From Ceratodon purpureus (Eukaryota > Streptophyta > Bryopsida > Pseudoditrichales > Ditrichaceae), in contig CM026421.1 in NCBI GenBank assembly GCA_014871385.1, positions 18,883,981 through 18,947,980 on the forward strand: a stretch of DNA of 64,000 bases. Direction: 5' to 3'. Position 1 is the first letter of the stretch. Each line of letters begins with the position of its first letter. Under the pieces are notes generated by a model that was not told where the DNA came from, searched no databases, and worked only from the letters and a program-made list of their open reading frames with translations. The position numbers and the translations under genes are program-made. Positions 3,201 to 52,248 of this stretch are shown one piece after another.

Positions 3201-3649
3201 TTCATGGACACTGGGTTGTGACGTTGGACCAGCTGCATGCGTAGCAGCTAGCTTCACGAGCTGACTGCTGTGTGTTCATCAAGAGTGGTCGCTTGTCAAA
3301 TGCAGGGACATTTATTCAGGAGGGTGGTTGTGCACCTGAGACGTTTGTGACCAGGATTATAAACTCGTTTTTTTGTCTTGGTTTCTGGTGCATATGGAAA
3401 TTGGGAGCGGGAGTTGTTGACTTGAATGTGGAGTGATCTGCCATATCCTGGGCCATGTGCACGACTTTGGGTCGGTTTTGAGTGACTCATCTAAGGTGGT
3501 GAGTTTGATTTGTTAGCGATTTTGTATGAAGAAGCAGGAGAAGGAGTGGAGGGCGAGTTGAAGATCAGCTTTGGTGGGCCAAGTAGGGGAGTCACTGGTT
3601 TGGAGAGCGATCGAGTGGGATTTTAGGTGCAAGTGGTGGATTGGGGAGG
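228..3649. other. Intergenic region with no supported gene
   Basis: The first few hundred bases are probably the 3' UTR of the partial gene to the left. A short run of variants of CTCTAAACTC occurs at about 1648-1728. No open frame has coding character, and I see no RNA gene. The last part is the presumed promoter and leader of the small gene at 3650. Confidence 0.5.
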
Positions 3650-3961
3650 ATGGATTTGTTCGAAAGGCTGTCGAGGGTGTTCATGCGGAGGAAGTACTCG
3701 CGAGTGGATCAGGAGCAGCGAGACCGTGCAGAGCGCTTGACTAAAAGCAAGTCCGTAAAGATTCCTCGAGAGAGTAGGTCGGAGCGGAGATTTGCGGCCA
3801 AGCAGGTGGCTAGCTCATCAGCGTCACAAAACCCTGAGCCAGTGGTAGCGCTGCCCAAGAAATTCACTCTCCGCTCGTCGTCCAACGATGTCATCGATGG
3901 CGCTTGGTTCAATAGCGCACTTCGCCGCTCCGTTGCCGAAGGACGAGTCACTTTGAGCTAA
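3650..3961 (+). CDS. Small basic protein, copy 1 of a three-member local family
   Basis: This is an intronless frame of 103 residues starting at the ATG at 3650; the frame stays open a few codons upstream but has no other ATG. The N-terminus MDLFERLSRVFMRRKY is amphipathic and basic. It is followed by a variable Arg/Ser/Lys-rich middle. The C-terminus carries NDVIDGAWFNSALRRS and then AEGRV. Both ends recur in the frames at 10738 and 14857 while the middle differs, which is the pattern expected of real coding paralogues under selection at their ends. No signal peptide or membrane segment is visible. I do not recognise the family. A homologous non-coding-looking segment follows this copy (4846-4880) and copy 2 (11296-11328), so the duplicated unit is longer than the coding frame. 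Function unknown. Confidence 0.7.
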   Translation: MDLFERLSRVFMRRKYSRVDQEQRDRAERLTKSKSVKIPRESRSERRFAAKQVASSSASQNPEPVVALPKKFTLRSSSNDVIDGAWFNSALRRSVAEGRVTLS

Positions 3962-8048: not shown

Positions 8049-8392
8049 GAAACCAGAGAAGCTCAATAACTTAGAGTGCCCTCAGAATCATTTCAAGAAC
8101 AAATGAAAACTCAGAAGCTAAAACCCTACACCATCCCACATGACTAAATGCGCTCACCAAGGTTTAAGGACAGAAACAAGAAGAATCCTGCCAACGAAGC
8201 TGAATGGCATGAATTGCAGAAGCCGAAAACCAGAGGAGACCAGCGGAACAACCTCAGAACCAATTCAAGCACAAACGAAGACTCAGAAGCTAAAACCCTA
8301 TGGCATCCCACGACACCAAACGCTCTCAACAAGGATTAGCGACAGAGACGAGGAGAATCCTACCAACGAAGCTGAATGGCTACCAAGAAGAA
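8049..8392. repeat. 172-bp direct tandem duplication, two copies
   Basis: Landmarks recur exactly 172 bp apart: CTCAGAA at 8081 and 8253, TCAGAAGCTAAAACCCTA at 8111 and 8283, and GAATCCT at 8183 and 8355, the last followed by CCAACGAAGCTGAATGGC in both copies. The two copies differ at scattered sites, so the duplication is not fresh. It lies upstream of the minus-strand gene ending at 7454 and may form part of its promoter or leader. The two similar short + frames here are by-products of the duplication. Confidence 0.85.
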
Positions 8393-10737
8393 AACCAACC
8401 ACCGATCGCCGCAACAGTGAGCAACAATGCAGGAAGAAAGCAAGCAAGGGGAGGGATCGCACAGGCAGGGGAGAAGCGATTTACCGGAGCAGTAGGGCAC
8501 CAAATGCGACGCGGAGGGGCTCGATGAGACGAGCACAAGGAGGCGGAGCGGGGAAGCGAGGCCGCGAGGGAAGAGTCGTGCGAGAATGCGGAATGGCGGG
8601 TGCGGAGGACGTCGTGATGGGCAACAAGTGCGCAACGCAACGCATCCTCCTCTTGCTTACAAACATCGACGCACACGCCCTCGCCATTTCTGCAGCACTC
8701 TACCCTGGAGGGTATTCCAGGGTATAGGCGTAGTATTACCTGGGTTTGTGGCGGAGTATTGGGCTAGTGTTGCGCTGGTATCGGACTAATATCGACAGAG
8801 TATCATGTGGTTATAAATCGAAATAGTGGAGTGGCAGGGTTGCACCGTATGAGACTGGTTCTTCCATCTGGGGGAGAATCGAGACCCGCTCTGAAGGGTT
8901 GCTTTACACTACAGTGGAGGAGTCCACGTGTCATGGATTCCAGGGAAACGGAACCATTATATTGGTCAGAAATGAGACTCTTGTTTGGTTGGGGTTTCTA
9001 CTTTGTGATTTTCAATTTAATTGATTGTAAAACATATTAAAGTAGTTTGTGAAGGCATTTAAATTGTGAATATGATATCCATTTATAATTTTGAACAATT
9101 ATGACTTTCACTAGAAATATTGAAGTCATTTATAATTATCATTGTAGGATGTGATGTGAATTATAAATATACAAATTATGGTTAATTTTCATTCTATTAG
9201 GTTTTATTCAATAAATGCTTCTATTGCATGATTAATTATAGCAGATTATTTAAGAAAGAAATTGGATTTCTTTCGGTCAACAAAGTTGTAATTGGTAGAA
9301 TCATAAATCAGTCTTTTTCTTTCATCCAAATTTCATTCAATGATAAAAAAAATGTATGATGAAAAAATCATTTGAACTTCAATTGCATACAGTGTAGTAG
9401 GCCTTTTATACTACAATTATATCCAAATTTCATTTTACGATTCCATGTTTATTTTCAACTACTGTATAGCAATCTATCACATTTGCAAAAAGCATTGATG
9501 GCTACTGTAAATTACCAGTACGCATTCAAACCTTGGCCTTCATCATCACTTTTTTGTAGCAAAGTATGCAGCTTCAGCTTTCCAAGAGGAAATCCACTGA
9601 AACACTACATTCATCTCAAGTTTTTTATTAAAAGTTTGGAGCTAAAGCAGAGGCTCAGATATCCAGTACTGTGGTCTAAAGAACAACCTCAAAGCACTCT
9701 TCAAAAGAAGGGCAAAAGAAGGGCAAAAGAAGCGCATCATCTCATTCAAAAGAATCCACTCAAAACTATAACTTTTTTAAGGCTACCTATAGCTATCCAA
9801 ATACTAAATAACTAACAGCCATCTTCACCAGCACATTGTGCAACAAATCAAGCATACCTCTCCCAACATTTAGTTCATGGTTTTGAGCTAAGTTAATTCT
9901 ACTCATATCCAGACCACAAAACACAGAAACCTCAAAGACATGGTCACATAATTTAATGATAATCAGGCCACATTGACATAACCTTAATCAAGCACCACAA
10001 CTTACACAACAACCCCTGAAACGCATGCACGCCCACCAGAGCTTAATTAATCAACATCACCACACTTACAGATCATGAACTTACACACCATACCGACCAC
10101 CCCAATAACACGAGCACCTGAGAAAGAACTTGTCAAAGATCCACCAGCACAAATCACCACAACGTGTGCACGAGTCAAGAAAGATGACCCTTCACTACTT
10201 TTAGAAACTCAGTAACATCATACCCCTTTGAAGCTCCCATCCTCCGTTGAAATAAATACCATATAATATCATTCCAAAACAATAGAATATCATTCCAAGC
10301 CTTCATGAACAGAACTTTCAAGTCCTGACTAGATGGGTCACTCTGATAAGTGAGACGAAATGAACACAAAATGAAGACAAAATGAAGACCAAACAGTCTG
10401 CAACGCTGTGTGGAGTTGAAACTGGGATGATGATGATGATGAATTAGTATTCTAGTAATGGAAGCAGGCCGCCCCATGCATGGACTGAAGAATATGGTTG
10501 CGTTTTTCATATAAGAATCTGTTTCGAAGGCTGCTGATCGATCGTGTAGATTATTGTCAATGATCTGTCAGGTACGTTCTGACGGTTCTTCTGGAGGTTT
10601 GTGGACATTTGTTGCAGCAGGTTAAGTTAGTAGCTGATCAGGTGCAACCGGGATTGAGTAGTATCGGTGTATACGGTGTACTGCAACAGTTGTACAGTTG
10701 CAAGCGCTAGTGGGGTTGTGGTGACGATCGGGAGGAG
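8393..10737. other. Intergenic region between the coiled-coil gene and small-protein copy 2
   Basis: 8.4-8.7 kb is GC-rich and purine-biased on the + strand, possibly a promoter region for the minus-strand gene. 9.0-9.9 kb is AT-rich. The 147-codon frame at 9372-9815 has low-complexity, AT-driven content and no recognisable feature, so I do not call it a gene. 10.2-10.7 kb is presumably upstream sequence of the next small gene. Confidence 0.4.
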
Positions 10738-11064
10738 ATGGATAATATGTATGAGAAGTTGTCGCGGGCGTTGATGCGGAGGAAGTACGAGAAGGTGGAC
10801 AGGAGTAGGTCGGTTGGGAACCACCGTGACGGGTTTGTGGTGAAGAGGAAGACTGTGACTGTGAAGATTCCCAAAGCGGAGAAAGGAAAGGAGAAGGTTG
10901 ATGATCATGGGAAGGATCATGTGTTGGAGACGTTGCCGGTGGTGAATCCCAAGCGTTTTACGATCTTGTCATCGGGTAACGATGTTGTTGATGAAGCGTG
11001 GCTCGCAGAAGCGCTTCGCCGTACCCTCGACGAAGGGCGGCTCGAAGTGCTTACGAAAGGTTAA
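10738..11064 (+). CDS. Small basic protein, copy 2 of the local family
   Basis: This is an intronless frame of 108 residues. The start at 10738 (MDNMYEKLSRALMRRKY) aligns with the starts of copies 1 and 3; an ATG at 10747 is an alternative. After the RRKYEKVD block comes GFVVKRKTVTVKI, which copy 3 shares (GFVVKRKRVKV) and copy 1 lacks. A Lys/Glu-rich stretch follows. The C-terminus has NDVVDEAWLAEALRRT and then DEGRL, as in the other copies. It is therefore a mosaic of the same conserved ends with a variable middle. No targeting or membrane signal is visible, and the function is unknown. High basic content and small size would fit a nucleic-acid- or partner-binding adaptor, but that is speculation. 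Confidence 0.75.
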   Translation: MDNMYEKLSRALMRRKYEKVDRSRSVGNHRDGFVVKRKTVTVKIPKAEKGKEKVDDHGKDHVLETLPVVNPKRFTILSSGNDVVDEAWLAEALRRTLDEGRLEVLTKG

Positions 11065-13243: not shown

Positions 13244-14856
13244 AGAAGAAAAGGACACACGATTGTATCGTGGCAGGTTAGTCAAGCATATTTTTCAACA
13301 CTTGGGAAATTGCGGCTTGCTCTTCACCCTTGAAACCATTGCGATTCGACAAAGACGCATATGCTCTTGACCTCCTTTGACTATATGAGCCAGCACATTT
13401 GGAGGTAACTTTTCACCAGGGTCTGTGATATGTGAACAGAGACTCTTACTAAACTCTCCAGGTTCTGTGGACTTAGTTCAATAACACTCCTGAAAAGCAG
13501 AATCAGAGTATGACATTATGCACCATTAAGCCCCTAGTCAATTGTCACATGAATTACAAGGTATCAGACCCACAATAGACTTGTCAACACCTGATTGTGA
13601 TAACAGCACCAATGAAGGTAAACAATGACAGGCGTAAGCAAATTGGGTCTCTCTTGTGGAAAGGTCATCTCTGAAACCAAGAGTATTGTTGTCCTGTGTC
13701 CCCACAGTGATGTGGTAACTCTTCACTATTGCCAAATGCCATGCATTAATGATGCAAGCAAGGCATCCATGTCGGAAATCTGCTCCAGTTCGTGCAACAC
13801 CCAATGACTCTCAGCTGTAGCGACTAATCACGGAAGATCACCTGAATCTTTGTACACTAGATCACATTCCACTAATACTCTAGTACTCCAGGCATCCACA
13901 GCACTGGTAGGGATTATTTTGTAACTGACAATGTCATTGGATCTCGTGTGTGCAATGTGCATCGTCCTGCCAGCCAACTTGAACTGCCCTTCAAAGTTCA
14001 CACATTCTCCGTAACGCCTTCATTCTTTAGCCGAAGGGTTAAAACAGTACACACCAACAAGGTTAATCATCCAGGCTCCAGCCATAGCAACTTAACATTA
14101 TCCAAGCTCAAGAATACCCGGGCCGCAACATCTGGAATTCAAGTTCCACTTGTCAATCTCGTGGACAACACCTTGCACTAAAATACTAAAAATAAAATTA
14201 TCAATAATCAAAAGCATTACTCAAAAGAATCCTCCGTTGAAAGTTTCTCAGTTTCTTTCTTTTGAAGTCACCCCAACAGGACACAGATATCCACATCATC
14301 TTCACCACATCTTGAGCTCCATCTTCCAAGTGTGCAGAAAAGCAGTTGTATCAAGTACTGCCTCTCCAGGAGAAAAATTTAATAAGAGTCGTCTCAAGTT
14401 GGGTCAAACAGTAAGTTAACAAGTTGTGCGTAAATCATGGACTGGTAAGAATTCTAGCATACATACAAGTGGAAAAAAATAGAAGTTTCCTAACTGAAGC
14501 TCCAACTGCACTTGTGTCCTTCACTCGAAGTCCCTCCAGAGAGAAAATGTCCCACTCTGCAGGCTCTCTTCACTTAGTTCTGGGGATGTTGCAGCCCTGC
14601 AGAGAATCCTGAGCGGGGCAGAGCAGGGCAGTGCTTGTTGGATTAAATCCCAACACACTCAGTCTGGAGGAGGCTGCCATGTCTGCCCACTTCATCGCAA
14701 ACCATACCTCATCATTCTAGCTGCCAGCCTGTGGCCTGCTCTGGCACCGCAGTTGTCTATCAATCTTCTGCACAGCTCTGAGGTTTGCAGCATATGAGTG
14801 AGCTTGTAGCAGTACATGGTCGCTGTATGATTGCTTGAATCGGCGCCATCGTTGGA

Positions 14857-15273
14857 ATGGAGATGTATGAATCGTTTTCCAGGGCGCTGCTGCGGCGGAA
14901 GTACAGGCGGATCGAGGCCGGCGGGGGCGGGTTCGTGGTGAAGCGGAAGCGGGTCAAGGTCGCGCACTTGCAGCAGGACGTCGACGTTGCCCAGCGTCGA
15001 CGCAGCACCGCGCACAGGCTGAAACTGCGGTGCTTCCACCTGCGGTTCCTGGTGCCGGAGAGGCTCGTGGCAAGCTTGAAGGCGACGTGCGGGAAGCTGA
15101 TGCAGCAGGTGGCTAATTCGAAAGGGAAGCCTGCAATTGAGCACACCCCGAACCCAGTGCTAATGCTGCCCAAGAACATGCCGCTGCGGTCGTCCAACAA
15201 CGATGTCATCAACGAAGTGTGGTTCCAGCAGGCCCTCCGCCGCTCCATCGCCGAAGGGCGGTTGACAATCTGA
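14857..15273 (+). CDS. Small basic protein, copy 3 of the local family (long middle)
   Basis: This is an intronless frame of 138 residues starting MEMYESFSRALLRRKY, followed by GGGGFVVKRKRVKV as in copy 2. The middle (about residues 36-105) is longer than in the other copies and rich in Arg/Leu/Gln. The C-terminus restores the family pattern: LPKNMPLRSSNNDVINEVWF, then QALRRS and AEGRL. The LPK...LRSS lead-in is shared with copy 1. The coding sequence is markedly GC-richer than its surroundings. The long middle could include a retained or newly exonised segment. The function is unknown, and no signal peptide or membrane span is seen. Confidence 0.72.
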   Translation: MEMYESFSRALLRRKYRRIEAGGGGFVVKRKRVKVAHLQQDVDVAQRRRSTAHRLKLRCFHLRFLVPERLVASLKATCGKLMQQVANSKGKPAIEHTPNPVLMLPKNMPLRSSNNDVINEVWFQQALRRSIAEGRLTI

Positions 15274-23693: not shown

Positions 23694-23801
23694 CCATGTG
23701 CATGGCCACTCCAGCTGCGTGTGCGTTCGTTGACTAATGTAGGAATACCATGTGCACGGCCACTCCAGCTGCGTGTGCTTTCCTTGATTAATGTAGGAAT
23801 A
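23694..23801. repeat. 54-bp direct tandem repeat, two copies
   Basis: Units begin CCATGTGCA at 23694 and 23748 and match at about 50 of 54 positions. The unit length is a multiple of three and the frame at 23508-23825 runs through both, giving a repeated segment (CAWPLQLRVRSL / CARPLQLRVLSL). The encoded frame is otherwise unrecognised. Confidence 0.85.
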
Positions 23802-24164
23802 CTAGAAACGGTGAAAGTAAGGTGATTCGACCAGAAGGAATGGAGTTAGAAATTATGTGAAATTTTTTTGAGATGAAGAAGAAGAAATGATGAAGAATGC
23901 AATTTGTTTTGTATTTTTATTCCACTTAAATAATTCTCTAGAATTTCTCAAAGTAGGAAGTTCATCAAACCCCCTTCTTGTATACTAGACTCTTCTTGAA
24001 CCAAACGTGATGGTTTATTGTTTCATCGTTGCCAATTCCTTTTTGGAATTTAACTGAATTAATAAAGTTTTTGGAATTTTGATTTTTAATGGATTTTCTT
24101 GTTATTGAGTTCATTATGAAAATTTATGTAAACGACGAGAAATGTAATAGTTGAGGTTAACAAC

Positions 24165-47093: not shown

Positions 47094-47876
47094 GTATGGA
47101 TTATAAGTATGGGTTACAAGAATTGTTCATCCATTTGTGCATGTGTGTGGAGTGGCTGTCACTTGACTTACAAAGAAAGTGCAAAAGAATTCTTTGATGA
47201 AAAAGTGGTATTCGAAATTTAAATCTTAATTATAATAGTAGATGAAGGTTGGTTGACTGTAATCACGTCATCAATGTCAAGTCATGTCACTCTATGTAGA
47301 AAGAAAAGTACATAAGGTCTTACTTAAAGGGCTCTTTGAAAAAAATTGATGTAGCAAAGTTAAGAAAAGACATGGAGACATGCAATATATCCAATCATTT
47401 CCACATCATGCATGTTAAAATAGATTGATATTGTATGTCTAAGGTTCTTTATATCTTGTTGAGAGACAACAAAGAGATTTTTAAATACATTGTGATTTTT
47501 ACGTGGCAAGTGTCCAAGATTTTGCGAATTTTTAAGATGTTAAAGTGAATATTGAATTTTTGAAAAATAAAGGTTTTGTACTAGAAAATAATATTGATGA
47601 AGATATGGTTTTGTGTGATGATGTAAGAGATGTCAAAAAAGTAGAACTTATAGATCAGGTTTTTTAAGTGATGATGTAAGAGATCTCAATGAAGAAGAAC
47701 TTATCGAATCATATGTTTCAAGTAATGATATAAGAGACGTCAACAAAGGAGAGCTTACAAAATCAAATGTTTCACGTGACGATGTAAAAAATGTCAAGCA
47801 ATGACCATTGCTACGTGACGATGTAAAACATTTCAACCAAAAATCAATACTTTGTCGATCAAGCCACCTCGTACCC
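47094..47876 (+). pseudogene. Decayed methyltransferase-like unit with acidic repeat tail, copy A
   Basis: After an acceptor-like CACAG, an exon-like frame (47094-47222) includes SSICACVWSGCHL, then KEFFDEKVV. This aligns with ASIRACKSINRHV, then YKEVLVPLL in copy B at 51.6 kb, and the DNA at this point also matches (CATCCATT-G-GC-TG). About 350 bp further right, a frame reads NIDEDMVLCDDVRDV, the same MVLCDD motif that opens the tail of copy B, followed by degenerate repeats of a 54-bp unit (47632-47835). Stops interrupt the tail. The order, a motif-I-like segment then an MVLCDD tail, is the same in both copies, so I read both as remnants of one gene family. No intact methyltransferase motif survives here. 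Confidence 0.5.
47632..47835 (+). repeat. Degenerate 54-bp coding tandem repeat
   Basis: The core GATGTAAGAGATGTC and variants recur about every 54 bp (roughly 47618, 47671, 47725), with shorter, more decayed units near 47778 and 47818. The translation repeats an 18-residue unit of the type DDVRDVNKxEL...S. Because the unit length is a multiple of three and the units keep one frame apart from a few stops, it was probably expanded as protein-coding sequence. Confidence 0.75.
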
Positions 47877-49380
47877 AGGATTAAAATTAACTACAATGAA
47901 AATATTTAAATATGTTGAATTTCATATCATTAGGATGAATATCAAATTTATCATGAATCAATTAGAATGGATCAATAAAGGTGTATGTACCCATTGTGTA
48001 GAATGTTAAAAACTTGAGCAAAGAAATAAAAACCTTAGATCCAAGATTTTTAAAAAAAGCAAAGATAAGATTTGTTCCAGCCAAGATCTTTTTAAATAAA
48101 TAAAAAAATCATGTCATAACTAAGTATTGTTAATCATTCTCTTATACTCTGGCAATGACATGCATGACCTGACATGCAATGGCATAACATCAATGATATG
48201 TCTTACAAATTGTCCTTCTAAGCATGTCACTTAGATGCTAATACACAATTCTAAGTGAAACCATAGCATTTAAATCAACATTAAACCAATTTATGATTTA
48301 TTAAAAAATCATATAATATGTAACAATAAATGATGTCATCCAAATGGATTCTCATATCATTTAAATGATGTTTTGATAATATTTGTTTGAAAAAACAGTG
48401 TATCATACTCAATAACAACAATTTAAAGGTGAAAATCATTATAGATGTGAACATCAAATGCACAAGTGGACTTTCTTCAACTACATTTTATTTAAAAACT
48501 CAAAAATAATATTAATTTTTTTATGCAACTCTATCTAAATCGGTCATGTAGAACCCAAGAGTAGCCCTTGCATCGCAAATATTAAATTTGTCAGGCTTTA
48601 TTGCACCTAATCATACGTCCAAATAGTAATTGCATCTTCATATATGATATTTATGACTTCTATAACTAAAGACTAGTCTAAGATTAGTGTTGAGTGGCGG
48701 TGTGACTTATTTTCACATTGTCACAAGATGCCTTATTATCTTCGATAGGACTTTGGTTATAGATTTTAGGCAATTGAGAAAGTGTATACTTTTTGCTGAG
48801 TTGTGCTATGACAATACTCATAGTACAACAAGATGCTCTAAAGTATTGTATTTCTTTATTGTTGGGTAGCATTCAAAACATATTTTATTATAATTTATTT
48901 TTTTAATTTACAAATAATGTTAAATAGTGATCCCTGACTTCTTATTTATAGGAGAGTAAAAGGCACATGTCAAAAGATAGAAAAATGAGCTGGTTAGCAA
49001 AGAAAGCTCTCAGAAATTGAAGATCCATTCAAACACAAGTTTTTTTTTTTATGATTACTTGGTACCTAATTCTAAAAGCACCCTAGGGGTTCATTATTCG
49101 GGAAAAATTCATTCACAATTAGAGAAGTTGTACTTGTATACCCCGTTCTTTAAAAATCATTGCCTTTTTTGAGATCTTAGTACGAAAAAATTCATTTGCC
49201 ATGGGTGTAGGAAGACAGAAATTTCAGCAGATGTAAAAAAGTTAAAATCACATTTACTGAATGTACATTTTGTGAGTTCAGAGAAAAAATATCCTGACAC
49301 TTTGAACTCTTTAGGAGCATAGTTCAGGTATGGAAGAGCTTGTTACTCTTTCTAGAGTTTACAAGGTTAGGCCAAAGGTG
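47877..49380. other. AT-rich block, no supported gene
   Basis: Mostly non-coding. Its right end may contain further decayed exons of the unit at 49.4 kb, but I could not join them. Confidence 0.35.
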
Positions 49381-50384
49381 TATTAGGCAGAAAAGTTTAA
49401 TTTGGAGGATGAGTGTGGAAATTTCTAAGAAGTTGCAGCTCCCCACTCTGCATTGAATCAAATGCATATGGGTTCCAATTTTTACTTGTCAATGGCAGGT
49501 TTAGTTCGAGTGCCCTCACAACTATGATGGAGCTTGGTATTTTTTGAAAACCAAAGGATGTCCCTCAAAACGTGGTGAAATTAAAATGGCAGATTATGAT
49601 GCAAAAATTGTGACTTTTGAACATCGCTATGCTGATGAAGAAATTGGAAGGTAAATATCAAAAGCCTTGAGATTTTGAATGTAGATTCATTTAGATAAAT
49701 GTCATTTTTATGAATATTTTTATCATTACAATTTGAATGATATGAGCTAATGTTTATGTATGGTTTTTATAGGTTTCGACATAATGTTCAAGGTTGCTAC
49801 TATCGTGCTGATCAGTTAGCAAGTATGCTCTGTGATCATTTGAAGATCTAGTTTCCAAATATTTTTGAACATTTGGAGAATGTATTAAAAGAAGAAGACA
49901 CCGATGATGATGTAATATCTGCCTAGGTAATACATCTTTCACAACAATGTGTATTACCAAAAATTATCATTGTAATATCCATACAAATATAGATGATGTA
50001 TCATATGGCTTTTTCATTTGGTTCGGCCAATATGGTAAGTATGTAATTCATCATTTCTTATTTTTTTAAATGTAATCTGCTAGGTGCCTTTAATTATTGT
50101 ATTTTTTATTTTTATTAAATGGATTGTATTTTTTTATAGAGACTAAAGATCATAATGGTAACGAGGTGAAGTTTTAGTTGGCTAGAGTGAAACTATTTAC
50201 TATTCCACTTGTTGATGATGTCATGCTGTACAAATAAAAAGAATTGTGGCATTGTATGAGGACAATAGATGACAGGGGGCAGTTTGGTGTTGCCTTGTAT
50301 CATAAATCATCTTTTTTTAGATGGTATTCTATACTAGAAGGTCAAATCCTGAACAATATTGTAGACAAGCTTGTGGTTTCATAA
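49380..50384 (+). pseudogene. Broken multi-exon gene of repeat type, family unknown
   Basis: Several exon-like frames follow each other. 49506-49651 reads FECPHNYDGAWYFLKTKG and on to RYADEEIGR, ending in a stop at an intron-like GTAAAT. After TTTATAG, 49774-49925 reads FRHNVQGCYYRADQLASMLC and then, after a stop, FPNIFEHLENVLKEEDTDDD. An exon ending FFIWFGQYG precedes a donor near 50035. After an acceptor near 50141, ETKDHNGNEVKF continues through two in-frame stops to RTIDDRGQFGVALYHKSSFF. Introns, Cys/His-containing blocks and an acidic end mark it as formerly coding, and at least three premature stops mark it as dead. The last block loosely recalls DUF4216-like tails of plant transposon proteins, but I would not assign a family. 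Confidence 0.5.
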
Positions 50385-51085
50385 CTTGATTGTTGTGACA
50401 TTGAATACTAAAAGTATTGTTTGTAACCTGATTTTTTCACAACTTATGAACATATAAGTTGTAGGAATAAACCATTTTTTATATTACCATGTTTATCATA
50501 TTCATTGATATTTTGACATTGTTTACTAATTTGTTGGATATTTAGGCTCAAATTCTGTTCTAATCTTCACTTTAATCTTAATCGTTCAAGTCAATCTTAT
50601 CTGAAGTTGAAACAAATGAACCTAGAGGTTGTACTTCCATTATAAATCTCTATGTAGGTTTGAAATTATCTATGAATTACACTTGAGTGGTTGTTTCAAT
50701 TCTGAGTTGGTATATAACACCTCACATAACAAACTACATAAAAAACAAACTACATCAAATAGTAAAGTATTAAAAGTTTTTATACATTATTTTTTAAAAT
50801 TCATCATAGCCATTCTAAGTAACAAATTAAGGACATACTCATGATGAGTTTATAGATAGTTGTGGGAACAAACCATTTTTTATACTACTCTTTGTTCAAA
50901 CAGCTCTGCCCGAGGATGCTGCCTTGGCAGCGGAGGGAGGCACGTGAATTACCATACATTTTTTTCCCTCCCTCGGTCCTTTCGGATCCGAAGGGACGGT
51001 GGGTTGCCCTCAACAGTGCTTACTCTAGAGCTTCCCCGAGGATGCATCCACCTCGGTTGAGGGGAGGCTTTTGTTTATTTCATAA
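50385..51085. other. AT-rich stretch with a small GC-rich island
   Basis: 50.9-51.07 kb is a GC-richer insert with two GAGGATGC motifs and a palindromic CTTTCGGATCCGAAGG-type hairpin near 50978. Its origin is unknown. Confidence 0.35.
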
Positions 51086-51871
51086 ATTTCCCACCCCTTC
51101 AATATTATTTCGAATGAGCTTTTGTCTTGGGCAAATTGGGCAGGATTTCAAGAGGAAAGGAGGTGGTTTGCAATCAATGGGCTTCCATTGACTATACCAA
51201 ATAAACCTTCCTTGACTCACAAATGCTTTATGGTGAAATGCTTTGTCTGGAAAGAGAACATTTGTGAAGGAAGAGCAGCATCTGGTTTTGTTTTCTATGA
51301 CAGGTCAGAACAAGCTGCTCAGGGCATCATGTCAACTGATGGTCATGTCATGAACTGCATCAGTGTCGATTCCCTAACACTTGAATCAAAAATCGCAAGC
51401 CGTTTAGAGGAGCTCGTGAGAAGTCTCTCAATTTTCTTGAGGCTCTTGTGGACCTTTGCACCATGGAGAATAATATTGTCATGGACCTCACCACATCCAC
51501 ATGTAGATTAAATATCCTTTTACATAAATTTAGTACGTTATATTTGTTTCTAATGTTTTTACTCTTATTAATCCTTTATTCAATCTTCAGGTGCATCCAT
51601 TCGAGCTTGCAAAAGCATCAACCGACATGTCATTGCTTTTGCATATGAAAATGTCTTGTACAAGGAGGTACTAGTCCCTCTGCTCCCATAGCTTGGTGAA
51701 ATCCAGTCTGAGCAAGCGCCTTTACCTTCTCCAAAGAGGAAGCGTCCCTTGGAAAATGACTATGAGCATGAGAAAAAGATAGCCCTTAAGCGCTCTTGTA
51801 AGAAAGTCTTTACTATTAGCTTTTGATGTTTGTAGCGATTTCTTCTTAGGAAAATACGGTTTTGGCAATAT

Positions 51872-51915
<44 letters not shown>

Positions 51916-52248
51916 TCAAACGGGGGTCGAAAGCGTTGAAGACTCAAGGAATTGTCTCAAGGTATCTCAGCAAGATAAGAAGCCTTATTTGACCTTTTCG
52001 TGTTCCTTTAGTACGTAGAGAACTTTGCACAGGCAATGACGGCTGCTCCTTCACCACTTTCTTTCACAAAGCATCGTAGTCCAAATCGTGATGCCGAGCA
52101 GTATTTTGAGCTATTTGTAGAAGTAGATAATATGGTATTATGTGATGACAGTGATTCCAAGCATACGAACATTGAGGAAACTAATAATGACAGTGACTCT
52201 AAGCATGGGTACATTGAGATATCTAATGATGACAGTTCCTCTGGTTGA
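51086..52248 (+). pseudogene. Decayed permuted DNA methyltransferase-like gene, copy B
   Basis: An open frame from 51086 (after TAA) to about 51420 contains NELLSWANWAGFQEERRW, KCFVWKENICEGRAASGF and STDGHVMNCISVDSL. At 51418-51422 the reading frame shifts by one base and continues KSLNFLEALVDLC, then NNIVMDLTTST. An intron (51503-51590, GTAGAT...TTCAG) then joins to CASIRACKSINRHVIAF and YKEVLVPLL, followed by a stop at 51689-51691. KSLNFLEALV followed by VMDLTTSTCAS and RHVIAFAYE resembles motif X (KP..LL..L) followed by motif I (DPFxGSGTT) and the next strand in permuted N4C/N6A DNA methyltransferases. Both motif-I glycines are replaced (S and C). Further on, frames read PSPKRKRPLEND and, at 52036-52248, VDNMVLCDDSDSKH with a repeated DSDSKH and an acidic end. 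Frameshift and stop show it is not functional. Confidence 0.5.
51874..51912. repeat. Poly(T) tract of about 39 nt
   Basis: An uninterrupted T run inside the decayed copy B, between its basic segment and its acidic tail. On the minus strand it is a poly(A) tail-like run. Confidence 0.95.

What the first reader, a model, noticed from the sequence alone, without database searches (positions are those of the whole stretch)
47094..52248. Two decayed copies of a repeat-type plant gene joining a methyltransferase-like core to an acidic MVLCDD tail
Copy B (51.1-52.25 kb) carries KSLNFLEALV and then VMDLTTSTCAS...RHVIAF, matching the motif X-motif I order of permuted N4C/N6A DNA methyltransferases. 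Copy A (47.1-47.9 kb) carries the same SI-AC...H...EV segment. Both then enter a tail that starts with MVLCDD and contains tandem acidic repeats (18-residue units in A, DSDSKH units in B). Repeated, intron-containing, dead copies in AT-rich DNA suggest a mobile or expanded family carrying a DNA-methylase-like domain, which would be unusual for a plant. What I see is the shared order and motifs; the enzyme class is inference, and both motif-I glycines are lost here.
Basis: partly seen in the sequence, partly recalled or inferred. Interest (0 to 1): 0.72.

Follow-up and report, generated by a model that had tools for sequence, protein, structure and literature searches.

The report
Dead DNA-methyltransferase fragment, probably plant
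In a eukaryotic, probably plant, chromosome lies the broken remnant of a gene whose preserved piece matches the cofactor-binding part of bacterial-type DNA amino-methyltransferases, an enzyme type seldom reported in eukaryotes; the second copy claimed beside it could not be told from chance.

Summary
Copy B is real. Read with a frame switch near 51416-51421 and an 88-nt GT-AG intron (51503-51590), it gives KSLNFLEALVDLCTMENNIVMDLTTSTCASIRACKSINRHVIAFAYENVLYKEVLVPLL, homologous to the motif X - motif I part of permuted N6A/N4C DNA amino-methyltransferases. All 9 PADLOC families hit are type II methyltransferases (best E 9.5e-5); 9 shuffles hit none. A profile of 13 phage/viral enzymes scores it 27.6 bits, against at most 6.7 for 10,000 shuffles, and ranks its two unjoined exons first and second of 2,149 window ORFs. 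Relatives found are bacterial, phage and viral-contig enzymes at 20-39% identity. It is dead or very degenerate: frame switch, stop at 51689, motif-I glycines changed, no motif IV found. 'Copy A' is not supported: no profile score, and its paired resemblance to B is equalled in 57 of 100 simulated windows and 34 of 300 simulated islands. No repeat family, mobility or intact relative could be shown; the own-genome search did not complete. Most likely a decayed, intron-bearing gene of bacterial or phage ancestry, in kind like liverwort DN4MT1 and rotifer N4CMT.

The parts
51098..51415 (+). Upstream part of copy B: open frame FNIISNELLSWANWAGFQ...RLEELV (106 aa); no significant profile match of its own
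   Evidence: reading; -0.3 and 0.2 bits with the two methyltransferase profiles; no PADLOC hit. GC of 51098-51760 is 0.404 against 0.281 and 0.270 in the flanks
51416..51421 (+). Frame switch (lesion) between ...LEELV and KSLNF...
   Evidence: frames read
51421..51502 (+). Motif X and start of motif I: KSLNFLEALVDLCTMENNIVMDLTTST
   Evidence: unjoined ORF 51385-51645 ranks 2nd of 2,149 window ORFs (7.4 bits); alone it has no PADLOC hit
51503..51590 (+). Putative 88-nt intron (GT...AG) inside motif I
   Evidence: inferred from splice consensus and from the restored reading, no transcript
51591..51688 (+). Rest of motif I and the following strand and helix: (C)ASIRACKSINRHVIAFAYENVLYKEVLVPLLP
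   Evidence: unjoined ORF 51572-51688 ranks 1st of 2,149 (11.2 bits); alone it has no PADLOC hit
51689..51691 (+). In-frame stop TAG (lesion, or true end)
51692..51826 (+). Basic stretch LGEIQSEQAPLPSPKRKRPLENDYEHEKKIALKRS...; PKRKRP resembles a nuclear localisation signal (consensus recalled)
   Evidence: reading; function inferred
52012..52248 (+). Possible acidic tail of copy B, with MVLCDD and DSDSKH repeats; link to the core not shown
   Evidence: ORF; tandem repeat 52145-52236
47094..47222 (+). 'Copy A' motif-like segment GYKNCSSICACVWSGCHLTYKESAKEFFDEKVV: not supported as a methyltransferase
   Evidence: 0.3 bits, no PADLOC or PHROGs hit; chance-level pair
47605..47804 (+). 'Copy A' acidic tail with 54-bp (18-residue) tandem repeat and a 1-base slip between units 1 and 2
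48981..49920 (+). Separate decayed coding-like stretch upstream of B (C..C...H....H finger-like piece 49173-49319; two pieces across a GT-AG gap 49651-49772); possibly an earlier part of the same gene, not shown
   Evidence: reading; weak Pfam zf-C2HE E 0.026, below cut-off; STAR_dimer E 3.4e-6, 26.9 bits against cut-off 26.3 on the 99-aa reading, but 0.00014 (42 aa) and 0.0059 (24 aa), below cut-off, on shorter pieces; no methyltransferase score

Best explanation
Copy B is the decayed remnant of an intron-bearing nuclear gene whose protein carried the S-adenosylmethionine-binding half (motif X, then motif I) of a permuted (beta-class) bacterial/phage-type DNA amino-methyltransferase, followed by a basic stretch and perhaps an acidic tail. 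In working relatives this half binds S-adenosylmethionine and a motif IV (D/S/N-P-P-Y type) upstream carries out methyl transfer to the amino group of adenine or cytosine (established knowledge of the family). Here the copy should do nothing: the frame is broken, a stop interrupts it, the glycine-rich loop that holds the cofactor is changed, and no motif IV was found upstream. Shown: the homology, the register within the enzyme, the lesions. Inferred: the intron as a spliced intron, origin by transfer from bacteria or phage, nuclear action of the ancestor on DNA, and the tail belonging to the same gene. Copy A is most likely an unrelated acidic-repeat pseudogene fragment, or too decayed to tell.
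For: PADLOC: 9 of 9 families hit by the 62-aa joined segment are type II methyltransferases, best E 9.5e-5; 6 of the 9 matches end within 28 residues of the model's end, the other 3 with 58, 72 and 141 residues left; the 164-aa reading hits 5 of 5 such families, best 3.2e-4. Of 9 shuffles none hits a methyltransferase; one hits two other families at 0.014 and 0.025 (10 shuffles were made, 9 were sent). PHROGs: 3 of 5 hits are named methyltransferase, best 0.0045, the other 2 of unknown function. PDB: the only 2 hits at E<=10 are DpnA-type adenine methyltransferases, E 0.13 and 0.14, over motif X and I. Profile of 13 phage/viral methyltransferases: joined 27.6 bits, E 2.8e-7; best of 10,000 shuffles 6.7 bits; the two unjoined exons rank 1 and 2 of 2,149 window ORFs. 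Larger profile (13 + 39 sequences): 30.1 bits; hhalign probability 94.5 over 54 columns. GT-AG gap. Coding-like island GC 0.404 against 0.27-0.28.
Against: Pfam and NCBIfam give no methyltransferase hit, only PF16805 at 0.049 and NF006362 at 0.19, both far below cut-off. The unjoined exons alone give no PADLOC hit, so the strong scores rest on the join that I made. The profiles were seeded from hits of the same query, so only PADLOC, PHROGs and the PDB are independent of it. No motif IV found; the stretch 51098-51415 does not score and its GC by codon position shows no bias. No intact relative from any plant or other eukaryote was found.
Confidence: 0.8

Rival explanations
1. Two decayed copies of one expanded or mobile gene family, each with a methyltransferase-like core and an MVLCDD acidic tail.
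For: A holds SI-AC and MVLCDD in the same order and at comparable spacing as B, and is the best-scoring ordered pair in the window outside B. Both tails carry tandem repeats whose unit is a multiple of three.
Against: Score 67 is reached in 57 of 100 Markov windows and 34 of 300 Markov islands. A has no profile score. DNA comparison is at chance for the core, 95 of 300, and weak for the tail, 24 of 300. The inverted and direct repeats found in 45-54 kb do not frame the region, and no repeats of 120 nt or more lie there. The translated search of 1,918 window ORFs against the window lists no A-B match at E<=0.01 among 31.
Confidence: 0.15
2. The fragment comes from a giant virus or other DNA virus once inserted in the chromosome, not from a bacterial gene made into a host gene.
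For: Endogenous giant-virus DNA in the moss Physcomitrium is mentioned in a passage of PMC12344493, and chloroviruses are said to be rich in DNA methyltransferases (start of the abstract of PMC7248222 in the listing).
Against: The motif is split by an apparent intron; elsewhere in the window lie cellular genes such as an OPT transporter and an F-box protein.
Confidence: 0.1
3. Chance resemblance: an AT-rich, non-coding or unrelated coding stretch that happens to look like motif X and motif I.
For: Only 54-62 residues match; the join and frame switch were chosen by reading; the unjoined exons have no PADLOC hit.
Against: Shuffles, independent libraries and the ranking of unjoined ORFs.
Confidence: 0.05

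Closest known systems
DpnA-like permuted (beta-class) DNA adenine methyltransferases of Streptococcus phages and Bacilli (e.g. phage 7201 NP_038314.1; PDB 5hfj, 5hek)
   Same: Motif X followed directly by motif I and the next strand; 30% identity over 54 columns in the profile comparison, 20-28% to each of 9 enzymes in the alignment
   Different: They are open frames in prokaryotic or phage DNA; 37 of 39 fetched genomic ORFs carry D[IPL]PY near the N-terminus (one of the other two is a 119-aa ORF on a short contig) and those aligned have G-S in motif I. B has neither, has an apparent intron, and a basic stretch after the core
Bdelloid rotifer N4CMT
   Same: A permuted amino-methyltransferase of bacterial origin in a eukaryote, clustering with phage enzymes (passages of PMC8885841)
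   Different: N4CMT is active, has SPPY and a chromodomain; no motif IV and no chromodomain hit in the pieces of the region scanned
Marchantia polymorpha MpDN4MT1a/b
   Same: A 4mC methyltransferase of bacterial origin in a land plant (passages of PMC8566409; PMC8885841; PMC12344493)

Membership tests
Permuted (beta-class) N6A/N4C DNA amino-methyltransferases | Motif X followed by motif I | tested here: met
   (on the joined reading)
Permuted (beta-class) N6A/N4C DNA amino-methyltransferases | Motif I near the C-terminal end, after the rest of the enzyme | tested here: inconclusive
   6 of 9 PADLOC matches end within 28 residues of the model's end, and basic/acidic sequence follows in B; but the upstream 106 aa do not align significantly
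Permuted (beta-class) N6A/N4C DNA amino-methyltransferases | Catalytic motif IV, [D/N/S]-P-P-[Y/F/W] or D-I-P-Y, upstream | tested here: not met
   Loose patterns on the + strand gave 2 hits in 45-53 kb and 6 in 46-51.4 kb; none reads x-P-P-[YFW] or D-[ILV]-P-Y. So B is called a fragment homologous to the cofactor-binding half, not filed as a full member
Permuted (beta-class) N6A/N4C DNA amino-methyltransferases | Glycine-rich motif I (D-x-x-x-G-S-G) | tested here: not met
   B reads DLTTSTCAS
Bdelloid N4CMT | Chromodomain fused to the methyltransferase | tested here: not met
   No chromodomain among Pfam hits at E<=10 of 8 pieces of the region; parts outside those pieces were not scanned
Marchantia DN4MT1 | Sequence kinship with MpDN4MT1 | not testable with these tools
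   No plant sequence collection; the passages read give no sequence; 'DN4MT1' at the start of a word gives 0 papers
Transposable element family | Terminal repeats or several alignable copies | tested here: not met
   Repeats of 25+ nt in 45-54 kb (5 direct families, 2 inverted pairs) do not frame the region; no second alignable copy in the window. Copies elsewhere in the genome could not be sought

The most novel reading that the evidence does not exclude
A plant lineage once held, and may still hold elsewhere in its genome, a nuclear, intron-bearing DNA amino-methyltransferase of phage or Bacilli-like ancestry with its own added N-terminal part, nuclear-localisation stretch and acidic tail, distinct from liverwort DN4MT1: a separate capture of bacterial-type DNA methylation by plants, later lost at this locus.
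Probability: 0.25. Interest if true: 0.75.

Novelty: new member of a known kind. Interest (0 to 1): 0.42.

Why it matters
DNA amino-methylation (4mC, 6mA) in eukaryotes is disputed (passages of PMC11065753); two clear cases in the passages read are 4mC enzymes captured from bacteria in rotifers and in Marchantia. A relic with an intron inside motif I would show that such a gene lived long enough in a (probably plant) nucleus to gain an intron and then decayed. It gives a concrete query for finding intact members.

Tried and rejected
Copy A as a second methyltransferase copy: rejected as unproven. A first version of the ordered-pair test masked B on one strand only; its best pair (score 71, reached in 5 of 60 simulated windows and 6 of 200 islands) used the antisense of B's own tail, so it was replaced. 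Mid region 48981-50384 as the missing N-terminal half with motif IV: no methyltransferase score, no motif, no relatives in viral contigs; in phages 12 records matched at E<=10, and the 6 listed have E 1 to 6. Pfam STAR_dimer on the mid region: 3.4e-6 on the 99-aa reading, which holds an X at a stop, falling to 1.4e-4 and 0.006 on shorter pieces; not pursued. Rfam at gathering scores and tRNA scan with the bacterial code: nothing. Substitutions between the A repeat units by codon position: [7,2,4], [4,3,4], [5,1,3], too few to conclude. Literature: searches listed no paper that, by title and start of abstract, describes such a fragment; passages only were read of PMC8885841, PMC8566409, PMC12344493 and PMC11065753.
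Full report
What is there. The 46-53 kb region lies in an AT-rich island (GC 0.29-0.35 in 2-kb steps from 42 to 54 kb). Of 10 ORFs elsewhere in the window scanned with Pfam, 5 had hits: two pieces of an OPT oligopeptide transporter, an F-box protein (kelch matches below cut-off), a GTPase, and an Ost-alpha-like transporter just below cut-off. An F-box gene and a transporter gene in pieces speak for a eukaryotic nuclear chromosome. 'Plant' fits but was not tested: no plant collection is on hand.

Copy B. On the + strand, frame reading gives a 106-aa open stretch (51098-51415), then a frame switch, then KSLNFLEALVDLCTMENNIVMDLTTST (51421-51502), a canonical GT-AG gap of 88 nt (51503-51590), and CASIRACKSINRHVIAFAYENVLYKEVLVPLLP up to a TAG at 51689. 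After the stop the frame runs on with a basic stretch (PSPKRKRP). GC of 51098-51760 is 0.404 against 0.27-0.28 on either side, as expected for a former coding stretch in AT-rich DNA; GC by codon position shows no bias (0.42, 0.42, 0.41).

Is it a methyltransferase? The joined 62-aa segment hits 9 PADLOC families, all 9 type II methyltransferases, best E 9.5e-5. In PHROGs 3 of 5 hits are named methyltransferase, the other two have no known function. In the PDB the only 2 hits at E<=10 are DpnA-type adenine methyltransferases, at 0.13 and 0.14, over motif X and motif I. In phages 96 records match at E<=10; among the 20 listed the best E is 5e-3 and 15 are annotated as methylases, several being the same phage under two accessions. 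Controls: of 9 shuffles run against PADLOC none hit a methyltransferase and one hit two other families weakly. A profile from 13 non-redundant phage/viral enzymes (82 proteins from 84 loci before reduction) scores the joined segment 27.6 bits, the best of 10,000 shuffles 6.7. Among 2,149 unjoined six-frame ORFs of 20 aa or more from the whole window, the two B exons come first (11.2 bits, E 0.028) and second (7.4 bits, E 0.4). With 39 further bacterial ORFs the 164-aa reading scores 30.1 bits, and hhalign gives probability 94.5.

Against: Pfam and NCBIfam find no methyltransferase; the unjoined exons alone give no PADLOC hit; the home-made profiles were seeded by hits of the same query. The upstream 106 aa do not score.

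What is missing. Motif IV was not found upstream on the + strand: the 2 and 6 loose matches include no x-P-P-[YFW] and no D-[ILV]-P-Y, while 37 of 39 bacterial relatives have D[IPL]PY near the N-terminus. Motif I reads STCAS where 8 of the 9 aligned enzymes have G-S-G-[ST]-T and one G-S-A-V-T. So B is a fragment homologous to the cofactor-binding half, not an enzyme. Whether the ancestor was N6A or N4C specific cannot be said.

Copy A. The 54-bp tandem repeat at 47618-47797 is real, but kinship with B is not shown. The motif segment scores 0.3 bits and hits nothing in PADLOC or PHROGs. Shuffles equal its match to B in 62 of 2000 trials for the core and in 34 or 355 of 2000 for the tail, depending on how much of the A tail is used. 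As an ordered pair it is the best in the window outside B, yet 57 of 100 simulated windows and 34 of 300 simulated islands do as well. It may be kin; the data do not say so.

Relatives. With the B reading itself viral contigs gave none and plasmids nothing significant. The own-genome search failed 14 of 14 times, so the claim of an expanded or mobile family stays untested outside the window. Inside it, the repeats found do not frame the region and no second translated copy appears.

Comparison. Passages read describe two eukaryotic captures of bacterial amino-methyltransferases: N4CMT of bdelloid rotifers, permuted, SPPY, with a chromodomain (PMC8885841), and MpDN4MT1a/b of Marchantia sperm (PMC8566409; PMC8885841; PMC12344493). 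B resembles these in kind as far as its preserved half goes; membership in either is untested or unmet. Searches listed no paper on such a fragment, judged by titles and abstract starts.

Verdict. The pair, the tail and the family were over-read. I rate it a new member of a known kind with moderate interest, held down by lack of intact relatives and of the species name.

Noticed in passing
3587-3958, 10711-11061 and 14839-15270, + strand: Three paralogues of a short protein (start MDLFERLSRVFMRRKYSRV / MYEKLSRALMRRKYEKV / MEMYESFSRALLRRKYRRI, end R-S-S-x-N-D-V-I...ALRR...EGR-like), 29-40% identical, E down to 1.6e-17; no Pfam hit at E<=0.01 for the two scanned.
   Followed up: partly
50457-50487 and 50858-50888: A 31-nt direct repeat, 90% identical, 401 nt apart, just before a GC-richer block (50.88-51.08 kb) with repeated CCCGAGGATGC motifs next to copy B (read): possibly an insertion edge.
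   Followed up: no
48981-49920: A decayed coding-like stretch with a C..C...H....H finger-like piece and a GT-AG gap (49651-49772), same strand as copy B; Pfam STAR_dimer weakly matches its end.
   Followed up: partly
51874-51912: Run of 39 T between the core and the acidic tail of copy B; could mark the end of a retroposed insert on the - strand.
   Followed up: no
8080-8380: Two 129-nt direct repeats, 83% identical, starts 172 nt apart, overlapping an open frame at 8122-8727.
   Followed up: no
23694-23802: 54-bp tandem repeat, 2 copies at 92% match, with a GC-rich unit inside an AT-rich island.
   Followed up: no
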